64,000 nucleotides of DNA, taken from Chloroflexus sp. Y-396-1 (GTDB lineage Bacteria; Chloroflexota; Chloroflexia; Chloroflexales; Chloroflexaceae). This document shows positions 1,452 through 57,706 of the stretch, piece after piece (within the stretch, counting starts at the first letter, position 1; every line of letters starts with the position of its first letter). Where the stretch lies: positions 1,054,001-1,118,000 of the forward strand of contig NZ_KI911784.1 in NCBI RefSeq assembly GCF_000516515.1. Reading direction: 5' to 3'. The notes under the pieces are model-generated. The model was not told where the DNA came from. It was given only the letters and a program-made list of their open reading frames with translations, and did not search any database. Made by a program: the position numbers and the translations under genes.

Positions 1452-2852
1452 ATGAGCCGACTGCGCACAACCACAGCTCTGACCCTGGCCCGTACTGCCG
1501 GTATCCTTTCACGTCGCCTGGGATTCGGCGGTGGTACCAGCCTGCCCGGCCAGCTTGCACGGGCTATCGATCCGGCTATTCTTAGCAACTTCTGCCACGC
1601 CTTGCCGGCAGGCGTGATATTGATCGCTGGTACCAACGGCAAAACGACAACCAGCCGTATGCTGGCTGCTATCCTCGAACAGGCAGATGTGTCTCTCTTG
1701 TACAATCGTGCTGGTGCTAATCTACTCCCTGGTTTAACAACAGTGGCAATCAACAACGCAGACTGGCGTGGGCTACCGCGAGCAAGTTGTGCTTTGTTTG
1801 AGACAGATGAAGCTGCGTTACCACAGGCGATCGCCGAAACACAGCCGCGACTGGTCGTTCTACTTAACCTGTTCCGTGATCAACTCGATCGGTACGGCGA
1901 AATTGACACCATTGCCCGCCACTGGCGTCAGGCGCTTCAGCAACTTCCTGCAACCAGTACGGTTGTGTTCAATGCCGATGATCCGGCAATTGCCGATATA
2001 GTGCATCAGCTTCCTGTTCGCACTGTAGCCTTCGGCCTGGCCGATGAACGTCACGCAGTCGGTGCTGCTACCCACATCGCCGACTCACAGTTTTGCCATA
2101 CCTGCGGCCATCGCTACCAGTATCAGCGCATCTTCTATGCCCACATCGGTCACTACGTCTGCCCACAGTGTGGTCATCGGCGCCCTGATCCGGTCATTGT
2201 GTTGACCGTTCTTGAACCAGATGGGCTTGAGGGGAGTGATCTCCAGATCGACCATCCCAACGGTCAACTCCGGTTTCACCTACCATTACCAGGTCTCTAC
2301 AACGCCCAAAATGCGCTTGCGGCTACGGCAGCGGCGCTGGCTTCAGGTATCGACACACCAACAATTTGTACAGCGCTGAGTAATATTCAGGCTGCTTTTG
2401 GTCGTATTGAACGCATCACTGCCGGTAGCCATGGCCCAACAATGCTGATCGCCCTGATCAAAAATCCAGTTGGGGCTTCAGAGACGGTACGGATGTTCAC
2501 AACAGCGACTACCAGGCCACTCCATCTCCTGATCGCCATAAATGATCGCTTCGCCGATGGTACCGATGTTTCGTGGCTATGGGACGCCGATTTTGAGCCA
2601 TTAGCTCAGCGGGTAGCCCATGTGACTGTCAGCGGTACTCGTGCTGCCGATATGGCGTTACGTCTCGATTATGCTGGTGTTGCTGCCGAAGCCATTACTG
2701 TCATCGATGATCTCCCCCCTGCACTCGATACCGCACTGGCAGCTCTGCCACCTGGTGAAACGCTTGCCATTCTGCCCACCTATACTGCGATGCTCGAATT
2801 GCGCAGCGAAATTACCCGTCGCGGCTGGGCGCGTCCCTTTTGGGAAGCGTAG
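1452..2852 (+). CDS. murT: MurT-like Mur ligase (lipid II isoglutaminyl synthase subunit)
   Basis: Mur-ligase family protein of 466 residues. The ATP-binding loop GTNGKTT is at residues 60-66. A four-cysteine zinc ribbon (CHTCGH at 215-220 and CPQCGH at 237-242) is inserted in the central domain; this insertion separates MurT from MurC-F. The C-terminal domain matches the DUF1727 part of the family. In Gram-positive bacteria MurT with the glutaminase GatD amidates D-Glu of lipid II. gatD usually follows murT immediately, but here a non-coding repeat element follows, so the partner must lie elsewhere. No clear ribosome-binding site is seen before the ATG at 1452, which is 5 bp after the preceding stop. 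Confidence 0.85.
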   Translation: MSRLRTTTALTLARTAGILSRRLGFGGGTSLPGQLARAIDPAILSNFCHALPAGVILIAGTNGKTTTSRMLAAILEQADVSLLYNRAGANLLPGLTTVAINNADWRGLPRASCALFETDEAALPQAIAETQPRLVVLLNLFRDQLDRYGEIDTIARHWRQALQQLPATSTVVFNADDPAIADIVHQLPVRTVAFGLADERHAVGAATHIADSQFCHTCGHRYQYQRIFYAHIGHYVCPQCGHRRPDPVIVLTVLEPDGLEGSDLQIDHPNGQLRFHLPLPGLYNAQNALAATAAALASGIDTPTICTALSNIQAAFGRIERITAGSHGPTMLIALIKNPVGASETVRMFTTATTRPLHLLIAINDRFADGTDVSWLWDADFEPLAQRVAHVTVSGTRAADMALRLDYAGVAAEAITVIDDLPPALDTALAALPPGETLAILPTYTAMLELRSEITRRGWARPFWEA

Positions 2853-3010
2853 AGACATCTCAGAATTGTCATTCTGTAACTTATATTGTCTAAGAGCCTT
2901 ATCAAAACCCGGATTTCTCATCGGGTACATACCGTACCCGTGCAACCATTGCGTGAGGGATTTCCAACGTTCTTTCGCTCCAGCCACCCCCACGTTCCCC
3001 CTTACTCTAG

Positions 3011-3205
3011 CAAACGGGAGCCAGGGGGAAGGTGCGGGGACTCCCCTCCCCCCCTTCCTCGCCCCAAGCGGCGGAGCAGACGGGAGCCAGGGAGAAGATG
3101 CGGAGACTCCCATCCCCCCTTCCTCGCCCCCAGCGGCGGAGCAGACAGGAGCCAGGGAGAAGATGCGGGGACTCCCATCTCCCCCTTCCTCGCCCCCAGC
3201 GGGGG
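3011..3205. repeat. Three tandem units of about 65 bp
   Basis: Three successive units starting near 3011, 3076 and 3141. Each contains a GGGAGCCAGGG-type segment, a GACTCCC segment and a CCCCCTTCCTCGCCCC segment. The units differ by a few substitutions, and the third merges into the hairpin repeat that follows. They explain most of the extra length of this element copy over the one at 6393-6701. Confidence 0.8.
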
Positions 3206-3402
3206 AGAGGAAGGGGGCTGGGGGGAAGGTGAGGGCCCCCGTTCCATCGCGTCGCCGCGACGCATGCGTTACCTGCCACCGGTTCCCTGACCACTGGAGC
3301 AACCACCCTCCCCCTTCCTCGCCCCCAGCGGGGGAGAGGAAGGGGGCTGGGGGGAAGGTGAGGGCCCCCCGTTCCATCGCGTCGCCACGACGCATGCGTT
3401 AC
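3181..3402. repeat. Direct duplication of a hairpin repeat, period about 128 bp
   Basis: A segment of about 92 bp occurs at 3181-3272 and again at 3309-3402 with very few differences. Each copy has inverted CCCCCTTCC and GGAAGGGGG arms, then GGTGAGGGCCCCC and TTCCATCGCGTCGCC. The same hairpin core recurs at 6292, 6481, 17222 and 55934, and in weaker form at 19311, 30352 and 36040. Confidence 0.8.
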
Positions 3403-3729
3403 CCACCAACGGTTCCCCGAAACACTCTATTGCGTATCATTGTCGAGCCTCATCAACGGATCAGGTTTTTGATCATGCTCTAAGATTCGCTCACTCACAG
3501 CGATTTCCTGGCACGCCGACATCGTTCTGAACAGTAGCGTACCTCATTCCAGCAGGCAGCCCACTTTTTGCGCCATTCAAAGGGGCGCTGACATACTACA
3601 CATATTTTGGTCGGCAATTGACCTTTGCGCCTCGGCGTATGCTCTGTGGCATTAGTCTGGTTTGTGCGTGCCATCCTCGCATATCCTTTTGCGCTGAAAA
3701 ACGTTCTAATCTATAGAGTAGGTTTACTA

Positions 3730-6164: not shown

Positions 6165-6291
6165 ATTCGCTTTCGACGAGCGTTCGAGATGTAGGAATTT
6201 TCAACATTCTTCTCCACCCAGGAGCGGGAACGGAGAAGAGTAGAATGAAGGAGAGAGTAAGCGGAAGGAGCCGATTCTCAGCCTGCCTCAA

Positions 6292-6345
6292 GTGCCCCCT
6301 TCCACTCCCCTGTGGGAGCGGAAGGGGGCTTGGAGAAAGGTTAGA
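6292..6345. repeat. Dispersed GC-rich hairpin repeat
   Basis: CCCCCTTCCACTCCC and GGGAGCGGAAGGGGG form a long inverted repeat, followed by GGAGAAAGGTTAGAGAG. It belongs to the same family as the hairpins inside the 2891-3482 element. It lies 128 bp past the mutase stop and could also end transcription. Confidence 0.7.
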
Positions 6346-6392
6346 GAGCAAACATGCTGCGCAGGACGGCCCCTGAAAACGTTGAAAACCCC

Positions 6393-6701
6393 TAAGACCT
6401 CAAAGACCCGGATTTCCCATGAGGCTCGTACCGTGCCTGTGCAACCATTTGGGAGGTTGCCAATATGCTTTCGCTCTCGCACCCCACCTTCCTCCTCCCT
6501 CTCCCCATGGGGGAAAGGAAGGGTGCTAAGGGGGCAGGCGAGGACCGCCAGGCGTGCGCCGCAGCACAAGCGCTGAAACCATCGAAACCCTTTTCCATCG
6601 CGTCGCGGAGACGCATGGCGTTGCCCACCAACGTTTCCCTAACCATTGTCGATGTCATTGGTCGAGACTCATCAACAGCCCAGGTTTTTGATCATCCCCT
6701 A
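6393..6701. mobile_element. MITE-like element, copy 2 (about 309 bp)
   Basis: The left end reads CTAAGACCTCAAAGACCCGG and the right end CAGGTTTTTGATCATCCCCT followed by AAG. Interior matches to the copy at 2891-3482 include ACCGTGCCTGTGCAACCATT near the left, the TTTCCATCGCGTCGC segment, and the ACTCATCAAC segment near the right. Only one hairpin repeat unit (6481-6543) is present. The left flank GAAAACGTTGAAAACC (6375-6390) also occurs, inverted, beyond the right end of the copy at 55390-55722, so the true boundary may lie further out. From 6702 to 6985 I see no gene. Confidence 0.6.
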
Positions 6702-6985
6702 AGACCGGGTAGAGCAAAAAGTTCTAGGAGTCTGTCTGAAAACCCTTTGCGCTTCTAGTCGTTCGTGCACATTTTGGGTGCGAGGGAGCCTTACTCGCGG
6801 AATTGTAGTCCAAAATCCTTTTCCTCCCTGCTGACACTGGGGAATGGGCCTCTCGCCGATCATGCCTGTCACCTCACCGATAGGGCGAGGCCAAACCCAT
6901 CTATCATGGCCTGGTATTTGTAAACATCTTCTGTTCACCCTTGAACGTTCCTAAAAGATGGGTAACGGTCAGGAACAATTCAACC

Positions 6986-29902: not shown

Positions 29903-29993
29903 TGGCGGGGAGAGTGAGATTCGAACTCACGAGGGCTTGTTAGGCCCTACCCGTTTTCGAGACGGGCACGTTCAACCACTCCGTCATCTCCCC
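29903..29993 (-). tRNA. tRNA-Ser (anticodon CGA)
   Basis: Type II tRNA on the minus strand. The acceptor stem is GGGGAGA with TCTCCCC, discriminator G, and CCA is encoded. Anticodon stem CCCGT/ACGGG holds loop CTCGAAA with anticodon CGA, reading UCG. A long variable arm (AGGGCCTAACAAGCCCT) and T arm GTGAGTTCGAATCTCAC complete the cloverleaf. A consensus promoter and a terminator flank it. Confidence 0.96.
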
Positions 29994-54236: not shown

Positions 54237-55253
54237 TCAAGCTGCAACATCAGTGGTCGCTTGTCTTGGAACAGGTGTATTCATCGTAATCTCGAAATGA
54301 CACGCTGCCCGATGATCGTTGCCAACGCTCCGCAGTTCGGGCACAATGTTCAGACATTCTTCGCGGGCGTAATCACAACGTGGACTGAAAGGACAGATCG
54401 GCGGCAGATCGATCAAATTCGGTGGCAGGCCACGAATCGGGGTCAGACGTCGACCACGTTCTTCATCGAGCCGTGGGATTGAACGAAGCAATCCGATGGT
54501 ATACGGCATGCGTGGATTGGCAAAAATCTCACTTGTTGGCCCTTCTTCAACGACTTTCCCGGCATACATAACCGTCACCCGGTCGGTCATGCCGGCCACA
54601 ACGCCGAGGTCGTGCGTAATCAAAATTACCGCAGTTTCAAGCTCTTCACGCAAGCGGTTGATCAGCTCAAGAATCTGCGCTTGAATGGTAACGTCGAGAG
54701 CCGTGGTTGGCTCATCGGCAATCAACAATTCTGGATTACACGACAGGGCCATTGCGATCATCACTCGTTGTCGCATACCTCCCGAAAACTGGTGAGGATA
54801 GTTATCAAGTCGTTTACTGGGGGATGGGATTCCAACCATGTCAAGCAGCTCGATAGCGCGATCCCGTGCCTCTTTTTTACTCAGCTTCAGGTGTAATTCA
54901 AGCGACTCGGTAATCTGACGGCCAATCGTCAACACCGGATTGAGCGATGTCATAGGGTCTTGAAAAATCATCGCAATCCGATTCCCGCGAATATGCCGCA
55001 TCTCTTCTTCACTGGCCTGGAGCAGGTCTTCACCATCAAACAAAATTTGCCCGCCGACGATCTTACCCGGTGGATTCGGGATCAACCGCATGATCGAGAG
55101 TGAAGTCACCGATTTGCCACATCCAGACTCGCCGACAATACCAAGCGTTTCACCACGATTCACATAAAAAGAAACACCGTCAACCGCTTTGACGATGCCA
55201 TCCTGGGTATAAAAGTAGGTGCGCAGATCACGCACTTCAAGCAACGGGGCCAT
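54237..55253 (-). CDS. oppD: Oligopeptide ABC transporter ATP-binding protein OppD-like
   Basis: 338 residues. Walker [12 protein letters not shown], signature [15 protein letters not shown], Walker [13 protein letters not shown] and the C-terminal [14 protein letters not shown] oligopeptide domain. It pairs with OppF; the permeases OppB/OppC are absent from the window, so the transporter must be assembled from another locus. GATCGGTC precedes the ATG, a weak ribosome-binding site. Confidence 0.94.
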
Positions 55254-55389
55254 AAGACCGATCCTTTACTGTACCACTCTGTACATTACGCTGATGTCAG
55301 CAAGAAAATATGATTTACCTTGCTATGACGCGGATACTGAGGATAGTACCACAGAAAATCAGTTAGTGTCAAGATAAGGGGCAACGTTC

Positions 55390-55722
55390 TAAGAGCGTGA
55401 TCAGAAACCTATCTTCAGTTCAATGTGACGGAACAACATCCTGCGCATTCGACCGAACGTGGTGCCCCGCCATCGTCCGCCCCGACACCATCGCCACCGT
55501 ACAATTAAAGGCGCGACGCTGCGTGGTCGGCGTGATAACCATAACCATCGGCGCCTAAACGGAGCCGCGAATGAGAAATGACCATCTGCGGTACGACAAC
55601 GAGACGAAACTCTTACACAACAATACAATAACGTAGATGCGGTTCGTGCACTGTACCCAAACAATAGAAACATACGCACAATATGAGCCGAACCAGAAAC
55701 CTAGTTTTTTGATCATGCTCTA
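55390..55722. mobile_element. MITE-like element, copy 3 (about 333 bp)
   Basis: The left end reads CTAAGAGCGTGATCAGAAAC; the reverse complement of the right end reads CTAGAGCATGATCAAAAAAC. The ends match those of the elements at 2891 and 6393, but the interior is different (CGTGGTGCCCCGCCATCG and CGACGCTGCGTGGTCGGC). Beyond the right end, 55723-55740 is the inverse of the sequence flanking copy 2 on its left. No coding capacity. Confidence 0.6.
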
Positions 55723-55933
55723 GGGGGTTTCAACGTTTTCACCTACCCGGCGGTGCGATGGTGGTGAGAGGGGAGCGGAGTGAGGAGAGAGGAACGGAGA
55801 GATTCATAACCCGTTTGCCGTGCATGCGAAGATAGGTTCCCGTCCCAAGATGGTTTGTAGCCCAAACCCTGTTGCCTCACCGATTCTGCGCATTACGATA
55901 GCGGCAAAGGGCAGGTTCCTCCCGTTTCAAGCG

Positions 55934-55983
55934 CCCCTTCCTCGCCTCTGGTGGGCAAGGAAGGGGCTGGGGGAAGGTGAGGG
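55934..55983. repeat. Dispersed GC-rich hairpin repeat
   Basis: CGCCCCTTCCTCGCC and GGCAAGGAAGGGGC form the arms, followed by TGGGGGAAGGTGAGGGGC. It lies just past the 3' end of coxA on its transcript and may help end it. 55741-55933 shows no gene. Confidence 0.7.
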
Positions 55984-55988
55984 GCTGA

Positions 55989-57668
55989 TTACCAGACTCG
56001 TCGACCCGGAATATCAAAGGTCGCCGTACTAATGATGTCAATGATTGTTGGTAAATAGTTGATCAAGATCAAGACAGCGGCGACTGCCACCCACACCAGT
56101 AGGCGATCAAGAACCTTCGGTGCGTCTTCGGGACCAGAAAGAGCACGGGCGAAGGTAATATCGGTCACTTCGGCTAGCTTCTTGCCTCTTGTCAGGGTCA
56201 TGATCATGTTGAGGTAGTAGAAGATGGCGCTTACGAACATGATCAGCCCCCCGATCATAGCGAAGAAGAGGAAGAAGCGCCATTCATCTTGCACGTAAGG
56301 CGCACCACCAATATCCGTGCGACGCGGCATCCCACGTAATCCTAGCTCGTGCATAAAGTGTGAGAAGAGACCCATGCCAACGAACCAGAGCCAGGCTTGC
56401 GCAACGCCAAGACTTCGGCTCCAGAGCGCACGTCCGGTCAGGTGGGGTACCAACCAGTACGTAATGCCCATAAAGCTTAGTGCCACTGCCGTTCCGACCG
56501 TTAGATGAAAGTGACCTGAGATCCAGGCAGTGTTGTGGACGACCAGATTAATGTTGTACGAAGCGTTGACTAAGCCGCTAACTCCACCAAATGCAAAGAG
56601 CATCATTGCTACAATTTGGGCTGAGATTTCCGGTTTTCCCCATGGCAGGTTAAAAATCCAGGCCAGCCAGCCTTCACCGCCATTCCGACGCCCAGCATAT
56701 TCGAGTGAGGCCACCACATTGAAGAAGGTAAGCAGGCTCGGGAAGAAGACGCCAAAAGTGAAGATAGCATGTACCAGCTTCCACATCTCGGAAATGCCGG
56801 GATCGGTCACCTGATGGTGCATCCCAATCGGGATTGACAAGATCAGGAAGAGGATGAATGAAACCCGCGCCATCGGGTCGCTAAACAGCTTGCCGCCGGC
56901 CTGGGCCGGTACCAGCGTGTACCACGAGATGTAGGCGGGCAGCAACCAGAAGTAGACAATTGGGTGACCGGTAAACCAGAACAGGGTACGGGCTAATACC
57001 GGATCGGTGCCACCCACCAGCCCCAATGACCACGGAATGACTAGGAAAATCATTTCACCAGCTATACCGATCGTTGCAATGGTCCACATCAACATCGTGA
57101 CAATCGCCATAAACGCCGGCAGTGGCGTGCGCTGACCAGGGTTGTCGGCCAGCCAGGCATTACGGGTTAGGATCATATTCACCAACAAGAGCCACGTCCC
57201 GGCGACCACGAGTGTCAACCCAATGTAGAAGAGCGAGTCAGCTTTGAGGGGTGGATAAAAGGTGAACATCACAGTGGCATTGTTGGTGAGCAATGGGATC
57301 GCGGCTAGTAACAAACCAGCAGTCATTACCCAGAGCGTCGCCCAAGCTAGCCGACTATTTGCCAGTGGCCGATTGAGGCTCTTGGCAAAGATATAGGTCA
57401 AAAAGCCAATAATGTAAAAGGTGGTAAAGACGAGAACATTTAACACCCCGTGCACGGTGAGACCCTGATAATAGCCGCCGGGCAAGAGTGGTTTTGCCGG
57501 TGTATAGAGATCAAGCCCGTTGTAGCGCAAGATTTGCAATACACCCATCAATCCACCTACCGCCAGTGCGGCAAAGGCGATAAAGATGTTGATCCCGGCA
57601 AGTTTGCGCTCGACGCTCAAATCAGCGCTGATTGCTAACGGACGGGCATGTGCTGCAATACTGGCCAT
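55989..57668 (-). CDS. Cytochrome c oxidase subunit I, B-type (ba3-like)
   Basis: Catalytic subunit of a haem-copper oxidase: reduces O2 and pumps protons. 559 residues and about 13 membrane segments. Ligands are visible: His in GLTVHGVLN for low-spin haem, the His-Tyr crosslink pair in FTGHPIVYFWLLPAY, the CuB His pair in GMHHQ, and WISGHFHLTVG for the haem irons. The overall sequence pattern and the absence of the A-family Glu motif place it in the B family, known for high oxygen affinity. ATG 57668 follows GGAGAGAG. It is the last gene of a four-gene operon. Confidence 0.93.
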   Translation of the reverse strand: MASIAAHARPLAISADLSVERKLAGINIFIAFAALAVGGLMGVLQILRYNGLDLYTPAKPLLPGGYYQGLTVHGVLNVLVFTTFYIIGFLTYIFAKSLNRPLANSRLAWATLWVMTAGLLLAAIPLLTNNATVMFTFYPPLKADSLFYIGLTLVVAGTWLLLVNMILTRNAWLADNPGQRTPLPAFMAIVTMLMWTIATIGIAGEMIFLVIPWSLGLVGGTDPVLARTLFWFTGHPIVYFWLLPAYISWYTLVPAQAGGKLFSDPMARVSFILFLILSIPIGMHHQVTDPGISEMWKLVHAIFTFGVFFPSLLTFFNVVASLEYAGRRNGGEGWLAWIFNLPWGKPEISAQIVAMMLFAFGGVSGLVNASYNINLVVHNTAWISGHFHLTVGTAVALSFMGITYWLVPHLTGRALWSRSLGVAQAWLWFVGMGLFSHFMHELGLRGMPRRTDIGGAPYVQDEWRFFLFFAMIGGLIMFVSAIFYYLNMIMTLTRGKKLAEVTDITFARALSGPEDAPKVLDRLLVWVAVAAVLILINYLPTIIDIISTATFDIPGRRVW

Positions 57669-57706
57669 GCAACTCTCTCCTTCATTCCAGCCGAGCAATC
57701 GTATGC

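What the first reader, a model, noticed from the sequence alone, without database searches (positions are those of the whole stretch)
2891..3482. Non-autonomous element family with CTAAG-ended inverted repeats
Three loci (2891-3482, 6393-6701, 55390-55722) share ends of the form CTAAGAGC-TGATCAAAAAC in inverted orientation but differ in their interiors and length (about 590, 309 and 333 bp). This is typical of MITEs moved by a transposase encoded elsewhere. The TA at each end is compatible with a TA-targeting IS630/Tc1-like enzyme, but since CTAAG recurs at all copies it may be part of the element rather than a duplication.
Basis: partly seen in the sequence, partly recalled or inferred. Interest (0 to 1): 0.6.

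Follow-up and report, generated by a model that had tools for sequence, protein, structure and literature searches.

The report
IS5-type miniature transposons crowding one genome
The three repeats are short parasitic DNA elements that cannot move by themselves; they belong to a large family in this genome, and their ends match a full jumping gene found in more distant relatives, so this is a well-resolved but fairly ordinary kind of mobile DNA.

Summary
The three loci are MITEs (non-autonomous transposons) with 17-bp ends GAGCNTGATCAAAAACC and a 3-bp TNA target duplication inside a CTNAG target. The "CTAAG" at the junctions is target C + duplicated TAA + element G on the left, and element C + TAA + target G on the right. 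The genome holds 153 such ends at up to 3 mismatches, against 1 in the control. Elements 1 and 2 are one subfamily; element 1 is longer through internal tandem duplications of a GC-rich palindrome. Element 3 shares only the ends. Six of seven congeners keep the neighbouring genes together without element 3; in the seventh those genes lie apart.

The same ends bound a 900-917-bp IS5-family insertion sequence (transposase in two frames, TNA at both ends) in two genomes of another family of the order. No match to that transposase, or to the resident one, lies between MITE ends in the stretches examined here. The IS630/Tc1 idea is rejected; the IS1031 group of IS5 fits. Verdict: new member of a known kind. 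Extra interest: a composite interior built from a palindrome that also occurs elsewhere, elements abutting on one shared TNA, and restricted distribution (3 of 400 phylum genomes after dropping 4 coding matches).

The parts
2894..3480 (+). Element 1, MITE subfamily A, 587 bp, enlarged by internal tandem duplications
   Evidence: Ends; match to element 2 over 108 bp at each side (74%, 80%); tandem array
2891..2893 (.). Left target duplication of element 1 (TAA)
   Evidence: pair row 1056894-1057480 TAA/TAA
3481..3483 (.). Right target duplication of element 1 (TAA)
3009..3207 (+). 65-bp tandem array (3.0 copies) of the GC-rich palindromic unit inside element 1
   Evidence: score 328; families D1, D2
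3179..3369 (+). Two identical 62-nt copies (3179-3240, 3308-3369) of the GC-rich palindrome unit, within an internal duplication of about 130 bp
   Evidence: families D1 and D3, inverted repeats I1-I5
6396..6699 (+). Element 2, MITE subfamily A, 304 bp, left end degenerate
   Evidence: 48 further own-genome matches (many partial; 40 of 145 candidates were scored); alignment A1, which began one base late, at 6397
6393..6395 (.). Left target duplication of element 2 (TAA)
6700..6702 (.). Right target duplication of element 2 (TAA)
6664..6699 (+). Right end with a subterminal inverted copy of the end, 36 bp, hairpin-like
   Evidence: recurrent left/right matches 19 bp apart
55393..55720 (+). Element 3, MITE subfamily C, 328 bp, shares only the end with elements 1 and 2
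   Evidence: relatives matched at 4678000, 3160730, 253249 and 1875945
55390..55392 (.). Left target duplication of element 3 (TAA)
55721..55723 (.). Right target duplication of element 3 (TAG; one substitution from TAA)
   Evidence: row 1109393-1109720
55934..55984 (.). Copy of the GC-rich palindrome lying outside element 3, about 210 bp to its right
   Evidence: query 1635-1685: 36 other own-genome places listed, 28 of them more than 1 kb from any scored MITE end; sequence printed

Best explanation
The three loci are copies of a MITE superfamily that is, or was, mobilised in trans by a transposase of the IS1031 group of the IS5 family. The enzyme recognises the 17-bp ends GAGCNTGATCAAAAACC, inserts into a CTNAG (weakly TCTNAGA) target and duplicates the central TNA. 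The element begins with G and ends with C, so each junction recreates CTNAG; this can explain elements lying end to end on one shared TNA. The source was probably an insertion sequence like the 900-917-bp one found in two genomes of another family of the order; it entered this lineage, gave rise to MITEs by internal loss, and its own transposase is now lost or very diverged. Subfamily A contains a GC-rich palindrome that also exists away from MITE ends and in congeners, and tandem copying of that palindrome changes element length. Shown: ends, copy number, TNA duplication, target preference, congener neighbourhoods without element 3, the matching insertion sequence and an internal-deletion derivative of it. 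Inferred: mobilisation in trans, transfer from the other family, loss of the partner, re-use of junctions as targets.
For: 153 ends at up to 3 mismatches against 1 control. TNA duplication: of 42 pairs, 35 have TNA at both ends and 22 of these agree at N; permuted mean 9.25, 0 of 20,000 permutations reach 22. Flank logo of 127 ends chosen for TN[AG]: next bases G 81%, A 61%. Element 3 absent between its two neighbour genes in 6 of 7 congeners. Same ends at 15 loci of G042 and G054; of the 12 with both ends found, 11 are 900-917 bp and one is a 511-bp internal-deletion copy, TNA on both sides in 12 of 12, identical in 7 of 12. Its transposase ORFs match PF13340, PF01609 and NF033580 IS5 family. 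A published IS1031-group element has 17-bp ends, two ORFs joined by frameshift, 857 bp and TNA duplication (PMC12016507, one passage read). Four same-family junctions share one TNA.
Against: No transposase gene with these ends was found in this genome, so the mobiliser is not shown. 13 of the 35 TNA pairs disagree at N; two of these are 36-bp hairpins wrongly paired, the others may be mutation, mispairing or recombination. In G042/G054, 5 of 12 copies have unequal triplets, and 3 of 15 loci showed no second end. The insertion sequence's right end matches the MITE ends at only 12 of 17 positions, about as well as the resident insertion sequence does (11-12 of 17); its left end matches at 15 of 17. 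tblastn with the two transposases found no remnant inside MITEs. The closest pair of 20 aligned copies is 85% identical, so present activity is not supported.
Confidence: 0.88

Rival explanations
1. The resident IS5-family insertion sequence of this genome (ends GAGCCTATCCGAAAAACTGG, about 910 bp, TNA duplication) moves these MITEs, so no partner has been lost.
For: It matches at 8 of the loci fetched, has identical TNA triplets at 4 of the 10 PF13340 loci examined, and its end shares 11-12 of 17 positions with the MITE ends. Two MITE ends abut ends of the resident type.
Against: The MITE ends have TGATC at positions 6-10 where the resident end has TATCC. The resident type has its own surplus of ends (20+32 at up to one mismatch, control 1+0, against about 16 expected from 8 copies), which look like its own MITEs. 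The left end of the G042/G054 insertion sequence is closer (15 of 17), though its right end is not.
Confidence: 0.2
2. IS630/Tc1-type MITEs with a TA duplication.
For: TA is contained in the triplet whenever N is A or T (73% of 127 ends).
Against: The middle base is free (35% A, 38% T, 15% C, 12% G) and its two copies agree far above chance; the only insertion sequence found with these ends is IS5-family.
Confidence: 0.02
3. The repeats are not mobile elements but structured RNA or regulatory repeats spread by recombination.
For: Ends and centre can fold; elements 2 and 3 fold somewhat better than shuffles as RNA (z -2.28 and -3.27; element 1 was not folded).
Against: Consensus fold of 20 copies has a covariation term of only -0.4 kcal/mol and 5 of 33 pairs with a double change; no Rfam match at gathering score in the window except a tRNA; target duplications and the congener neighbourhoods without element 3 point to insertion.
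Confidence: 0.04
4. The ends are shared because one genomic segment was duplicated, not because a transposase moved it.
For: Elements 1 and 2 sit where gene order differs from the two single-contig congeners.
Against: Flanking sequences differ between copies, with the break at the ends, and TNA triplets agree above chance.
Confidence: 0.02

Closest known systems
IS1031 group of the IS5 family (example ISLrh, PMC12016507, one passage read)
   Same: 17-bp ends beginning GA, element of about 0.9 kb, transposase in two frames in the G042/G054 relative, 3-bp TNA duplication
BrickBuilt MITE of Porphyromonas gingivalis (PMC4596501; abstract and passages read)
   Same: MITE with a leader and a tail, a tandem array inside, and ends like those of IS5-family insertion sequences (copies such as GAGCCCTTTGCA)
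   Different: Here the inner unit is a GC-rich palindrome also found away from MITE ends; duplications here are TNA, in BrickBuilt three of four copies had duplications of unequal length and sequence; the matching insertion sequence was found here only in other genomes, there in the same species
REP / REPIN palindromes (PMC3733652, seen as a search listing only)
   Same: High-copy GC-rich palindromes occur in the same genome and inside subfamily A
   Different: The window elements have transposon ends and target duplications; no tag sequence or RAYT gene was looked for

Membership tests
MITE | Terminal inverted repeats at both ends | tested here: met
   left ends of elements 1 and 2 are degenerate
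MITE | Target-site duplication | tested here: met
   22 of 35 TNA pairs identical, 0 of 20,000 permutations reach it
MITE | No transposase gene inside, short (under about 1 kb) | tested here: met
   tblastn of the G042 and resident transposases over 94 intervals finds none inside paired ends; ORFs of 10 copies printed and judged repetitive by eye, not searched against families
MITE | Multiple copies at unrelated sites | tested here: met
   112 ends with score >=20 and TNA at 76 loci of the stretches examined; 153 ends at up to 3 mismatches genome-wide
MITE | Sites lacking the element in relatives | tested here: met
   Element 3: 6 of 7 congeners keep the two genes adjacent without it, exact joint not resolved. 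Elements 1 and 2: not resolved, flanking genes map to separate places or contigs
MITE | Mobilised in trans by a related autonomous element | not testable with these tools
   Candidate insertion sequence found in G042/G054; mobilisation needs an experiment
IS5 family, IS1031 group (for the matching insertion sequence in G042/G054) | IS5-type DDE transposase | tested here: met
   First ORF (copy L099): PF13340 E 3.1e-21, PF01609 E 1.7e-10, NF033580 122 bits over cut-off 110; second ORF (consensus letters): PF01609 E 1.1e-10, NF033580 72 bits, below cut-off
IS5 family, IS1031 group (for the matching insertion sequence in G042/G054) | TNA 3-bp duplication | tested here: met
   TNA on both sides in 12 of 12 copies with both ends, identical in 7 of 12
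IS5 family, IS1031 group (for the matching insertion sequence in G042/G054) | orfA/orfB with programmed frameshift | tested here: inconclusive
   Two ORFs in different frames in a consensus of 12 rows; frameshifting not tested, decay possible
IS630/Tc1-mariner | TA dinucleotide duplication | tested here: not met
   TCA and TGA duplications occur and the middle base agrees above chance
Rfam RNA families | Match at gathering score | tested here: not met
   Only a tRNA in the window
REP/REPIN | Tagged palindrome with RAYT partner | not tested
   Palindrome copy at 55934-55984 noted; no RAYT search made

The most novel reading that the evidence does not exclude
A lineage-specific MITE burst that outlived its transposase and works as a carrier: ends acquired from an insertion sequence of another family of the order spread a REP-like GC palindrome, itself older and shared with congeners, to new sites; and because each junction recreates the CTNAG target, insertions seed further insertions side by side and help break gene order (elements 1 and 2 both sit at gene-order breaks against the two single-contig congeners).
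Probability: 0.2. Interest if true: 0.5.

Novelty: new member of a known kind. Interest (0 to 1): 0.3.

Why it matters
It accounts for many of this genome's repeats with one mechanism, gives the boundary and target rule for annotating them, and offers a test case for how MITEs persist, change length and accumulate side by side after their transposase is gone. It also warns that long ORFs read across such repeats (for example 2641-3483 and 2658-3395 in the window) are probably artefacts.

Tried and rejected
First genome pattern had a wrong spacer and gave chance-level hits (41 against 24 control); discarded. IS630/Tc1: rejected by the duplication. RNA family: weak covariation and no Rfam match at the elements. 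A site-without-element test at 2017553 was inconclusive: G005 matches the left flank only, G007 gives two partial matches to the left flank, five congeners give nothing. Joined-flank ORF test: of 24 sites, 16 give no ORF spanning the join by 90 nt on each side and 8 do, the longest 561 nt; this suggests mostly intergenic insertion, and no interrupted gene was followed up. The genome-contig scan (exact pattern) gave one locus, a Lysobacteraceae MAG in which I found one end only, taken as chance; the tool warns that records of or near the own genome may be left out. In the 400-genome scan, 4 of 7 positive genomes (G047, G050, G053, G055) have the motif inside one conserved sequence that reads as recF by eye and were dropped.

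Papers. Eight searches listed no report of this family; two searches listed 20 of 31 and 20 of 62 papers, and only the open-access library was searched. Opened: PMC4596501 (abstract and passages), PMC12016507 (one passage), PMC6749651, PMC10927633, PMC12670165 and PMC10969869 (passages only; nothing used from these four).

Full report
Observation. The window (G000:C1:1054001-1118000 of a 4,890,986-base single-contig genome) holds three elements with inverted ends. They span 2894-3480, 6396-6699 and 55393-55720 without the target duplication. The 21-base end pattern matches 4 of the 6 ends in the window with up to 3 mismatches and 0 times in 100 shuffles. In the whole genome the 19-base pattern occurs 75+78 times at up to 3 mismatches against 1+0 for the reversed pattern (100 places are listed, best first, so those with up to 2 mismatches are all listed). 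I judge the host to be Chloroflexus-like from recalled knowledge; no call named it (only looked up the genus).

Boundaries and target. I put the window, loci and 40 fetched stretches together as 94 intervals of 338,028 bases and scored ends with a weight matrix trained on them: 221 matches, against 5 in the reversed sequence. Just outside the last C of the end comes TNA. Left and right ends were paired when both were followed by TN[AG] and lay within 1200 bp: 42 pairs, of which 22 have identical triplets. Of the 35 pairs with TNA at both ends, 22 agree at N; permutation gives a mean of 9.25 and 0 of 20,000 permutations reach 22. Three of the 42 pairs are 36-bp hairpins rather than elements and were left in; two of them are among the 35 and count as disagreements. 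Over 127 ends chosen for TN[AG], the next bases are G in 81% and A in 61%. The target is thus CTNAG.

Anatomy. Elements 1 and 2 belong to one subfamily, A: they match over 108 bp at the left (74%) and 108 bp at the right (80%), while element 3 shares with them only 17-18 bp at the right end. Twenty copies of subfamily A of about 300 bp align over 340 columns with 77% mean column identity. They were chosen by me for having both sides, not all copies; element 2 entered one base short, and at least four (L047, L049, L057, L059) stop at an inner copy of the end. Pairwise identity is 70-85%, mean 77%; end columns average 92% and 88%, interior columns 85%. The right end contains an inverted subterminal copy of the end, seen as left/right matches 19 bp apart; in element 2 it spans 6664-6699. 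The centre is a GC-rich palindrome. Element 1 is longer because this part is repeated: a 65-bp unit 3.0 times at 3009-3207 and two identical 62-nt copies at 3179-3240 and 3308-3369. Other copies go further, for example seven units in 2289895-2290768 (counted by eye). Element 3 is subfamily C, with relatives at four or more other loci.

The palindrome is not confined to MITEs. A copy lies at 55934-55984, outside element 3. As part of a query it matched 36 other own-genome places (candidates capped); 8 of these lie within 1 kb of a scored MITE end, among them places between MITE ends (2194499, 1997040), and 28 do not (ends were scored only in the 94 intervals). It also matched one place in congener G003. 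Palindrome parts of element 1 match congeners G003, G006 and G007, which have no MITE ends at the tested stringency. So subfamily A looks like a composite of transposon ends and a palindrome shared with congeners.

Sites without the element. For element 3, the two neighbouring ORFs (by eye a peptide-transporter ATPase, 54237-55253, and a heme-copper oxidase subunit, 55989-57698) are adjacent in G001, G002, G004, G005, G006 and G007, with about 180-410 bp between their matched parts against 734 bp here, and far apart in G003. A conserved upstream block ends at about 55358-55377, 13-32 bp before the target duplication, and element 3 itself has only chance-level matches there (E 0.42 or worse). 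The exact join is not resolved, because this genome has a further 265 bp to the right, partly repeats, without a congener match. For elements 1 and 2, flanking genes map to separate places in the two single-contig congeners (for example G003:3044270 and G003:2534447; G005:3608843 and G005:3101107) and to different contigs in the five drafts, which alone proves little. This suggests gene-order breaks at both elements, but no control count was made.

Distribution. With the 21-base pattern at up to 1 mismatch, 3 of 61 genomes match: the own genome (41+47), G042 (3+10) and G054 (0+2); all 7 congeners and the 29 other same-family genomes have none. With a 20-base pattern at up to 1 mismatch, 7 of 400 phylum genomes match; in four of these the motif lies in one conserved sequence, recF by eye, leaving three.

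The matching insertion sequence. Of the 15 loci of G042 and G054 fetched (same order, other family), 12 show both ends within the locus and three (L098, L104, L106) do not. Of the 12, 11 are 900-917 bp and one (L122) is a 511-bp internal-deletion derivative, showing how a shorter form arises. All 12 have TNA on both sides, identical in 7. A consensus of 12 rows has two ORFs in different frames. The first ORF (copy L099) matches PF13340 and PF01609 and exceeds the cut-off of the NCBI IS5-family model NF033580 (122 against 110 bits); the second matches PF01609 and reaches only 72 bits. ISLrh of the IS1031 group has 17-bp ends, two ORFs and a TNA duplication (PMC12016507, one passage read). The left end of copy L099 matches the MITE ends at 15 of 17 positions, its right end at 12 of 17; further in, positions 17-24 of the right end (CCGGATTT) agree in register with the left end of subfamily A.

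The partner in this genome. A DNA search with the insertion sequence found in this genome 8 matches to its end and one 36-bp inner match. PF13340 gave 10 places: eight belong to a resident IS5-family element with different ends (GAGCCTATCCGAAAAACTGG), one (892246) is a decayed relative, 46% identical to the first ORF over 125 residues, without recognisable MITE ends, and one (2655069) is broken by stops. No match to either transposase lies between MITE ends in the 94 intervals. A copy with both ends diverged by 3 or more mismatches, or with an unrelated transposase, could have been missed. The resident type has 52 ends at up to one mismatch (control 1), more than 8 copies can supply, so it probably has MITEs of its own.

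Mechanism. Ends, TNA duplication and the family of the matching transposase point to insertion of GAGC...GCTC elements into CTNAG by an IS1031-type enzyme acting in trans (inferred). Four same-family junctions share one TNA between two elements; two further ends abut resident-type ends. Because the element supplies G and C at its tips, each junction is again CTNAG, which is a simple explanation, though recombination could also give such pairs.

Literature. Eight paper searches listed no report of this family. The closest precedent is BrickBuilt of Porphyromonas gingivalis, a MITE with a tandem array inside and IS5-like ends (PMC4596501, abstract and passages). The finding is a new member of a known kind, with a composite interior as its least ordinary feature.

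Noticed in passing
window 55934-55984 and 36 other own-genome places: GC-rich palindrome of about 50 bp, high copy, also in congener G003; 28 of the 36 places lie more than 1 kb from any scored MITE end. REP-like, partner unknown.
   Followed up: partly
G000:C1, e.g. within 4072986-4076210 and 1263961-1267185, and ends listed: Resident IS5-family insertion sequence (about 910 bp, ends GAGCCTATCCGAAAAACTGG, TNA duplication) with a surplus of ends suggesting its own MITE family.
   Followed up: partly
window about 2853-3510 and 6165-6985: Gene order differs from the two single-contig congeners G003 and G005 at elements 1 and 2; flanking genes are on different contigs in the five drafts.
   Followed up: partly
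L247 (G054:C40), 1505-1553: Two MITE-type ends facing each other with only 49 bp in all and TGA/TCA outside, a very short element or hairpin remnant.
   Followed up: no
window 55724-55745 and L022 right flank: A short repeat of the type GGTTTCAACGTTTTCACC beside MITE ends, seen by eye.
   Followed up: no
window 29903-29993: tRNA-Ser (cga), the only tRNA and only Rfam match of the window.
   Followed up: no
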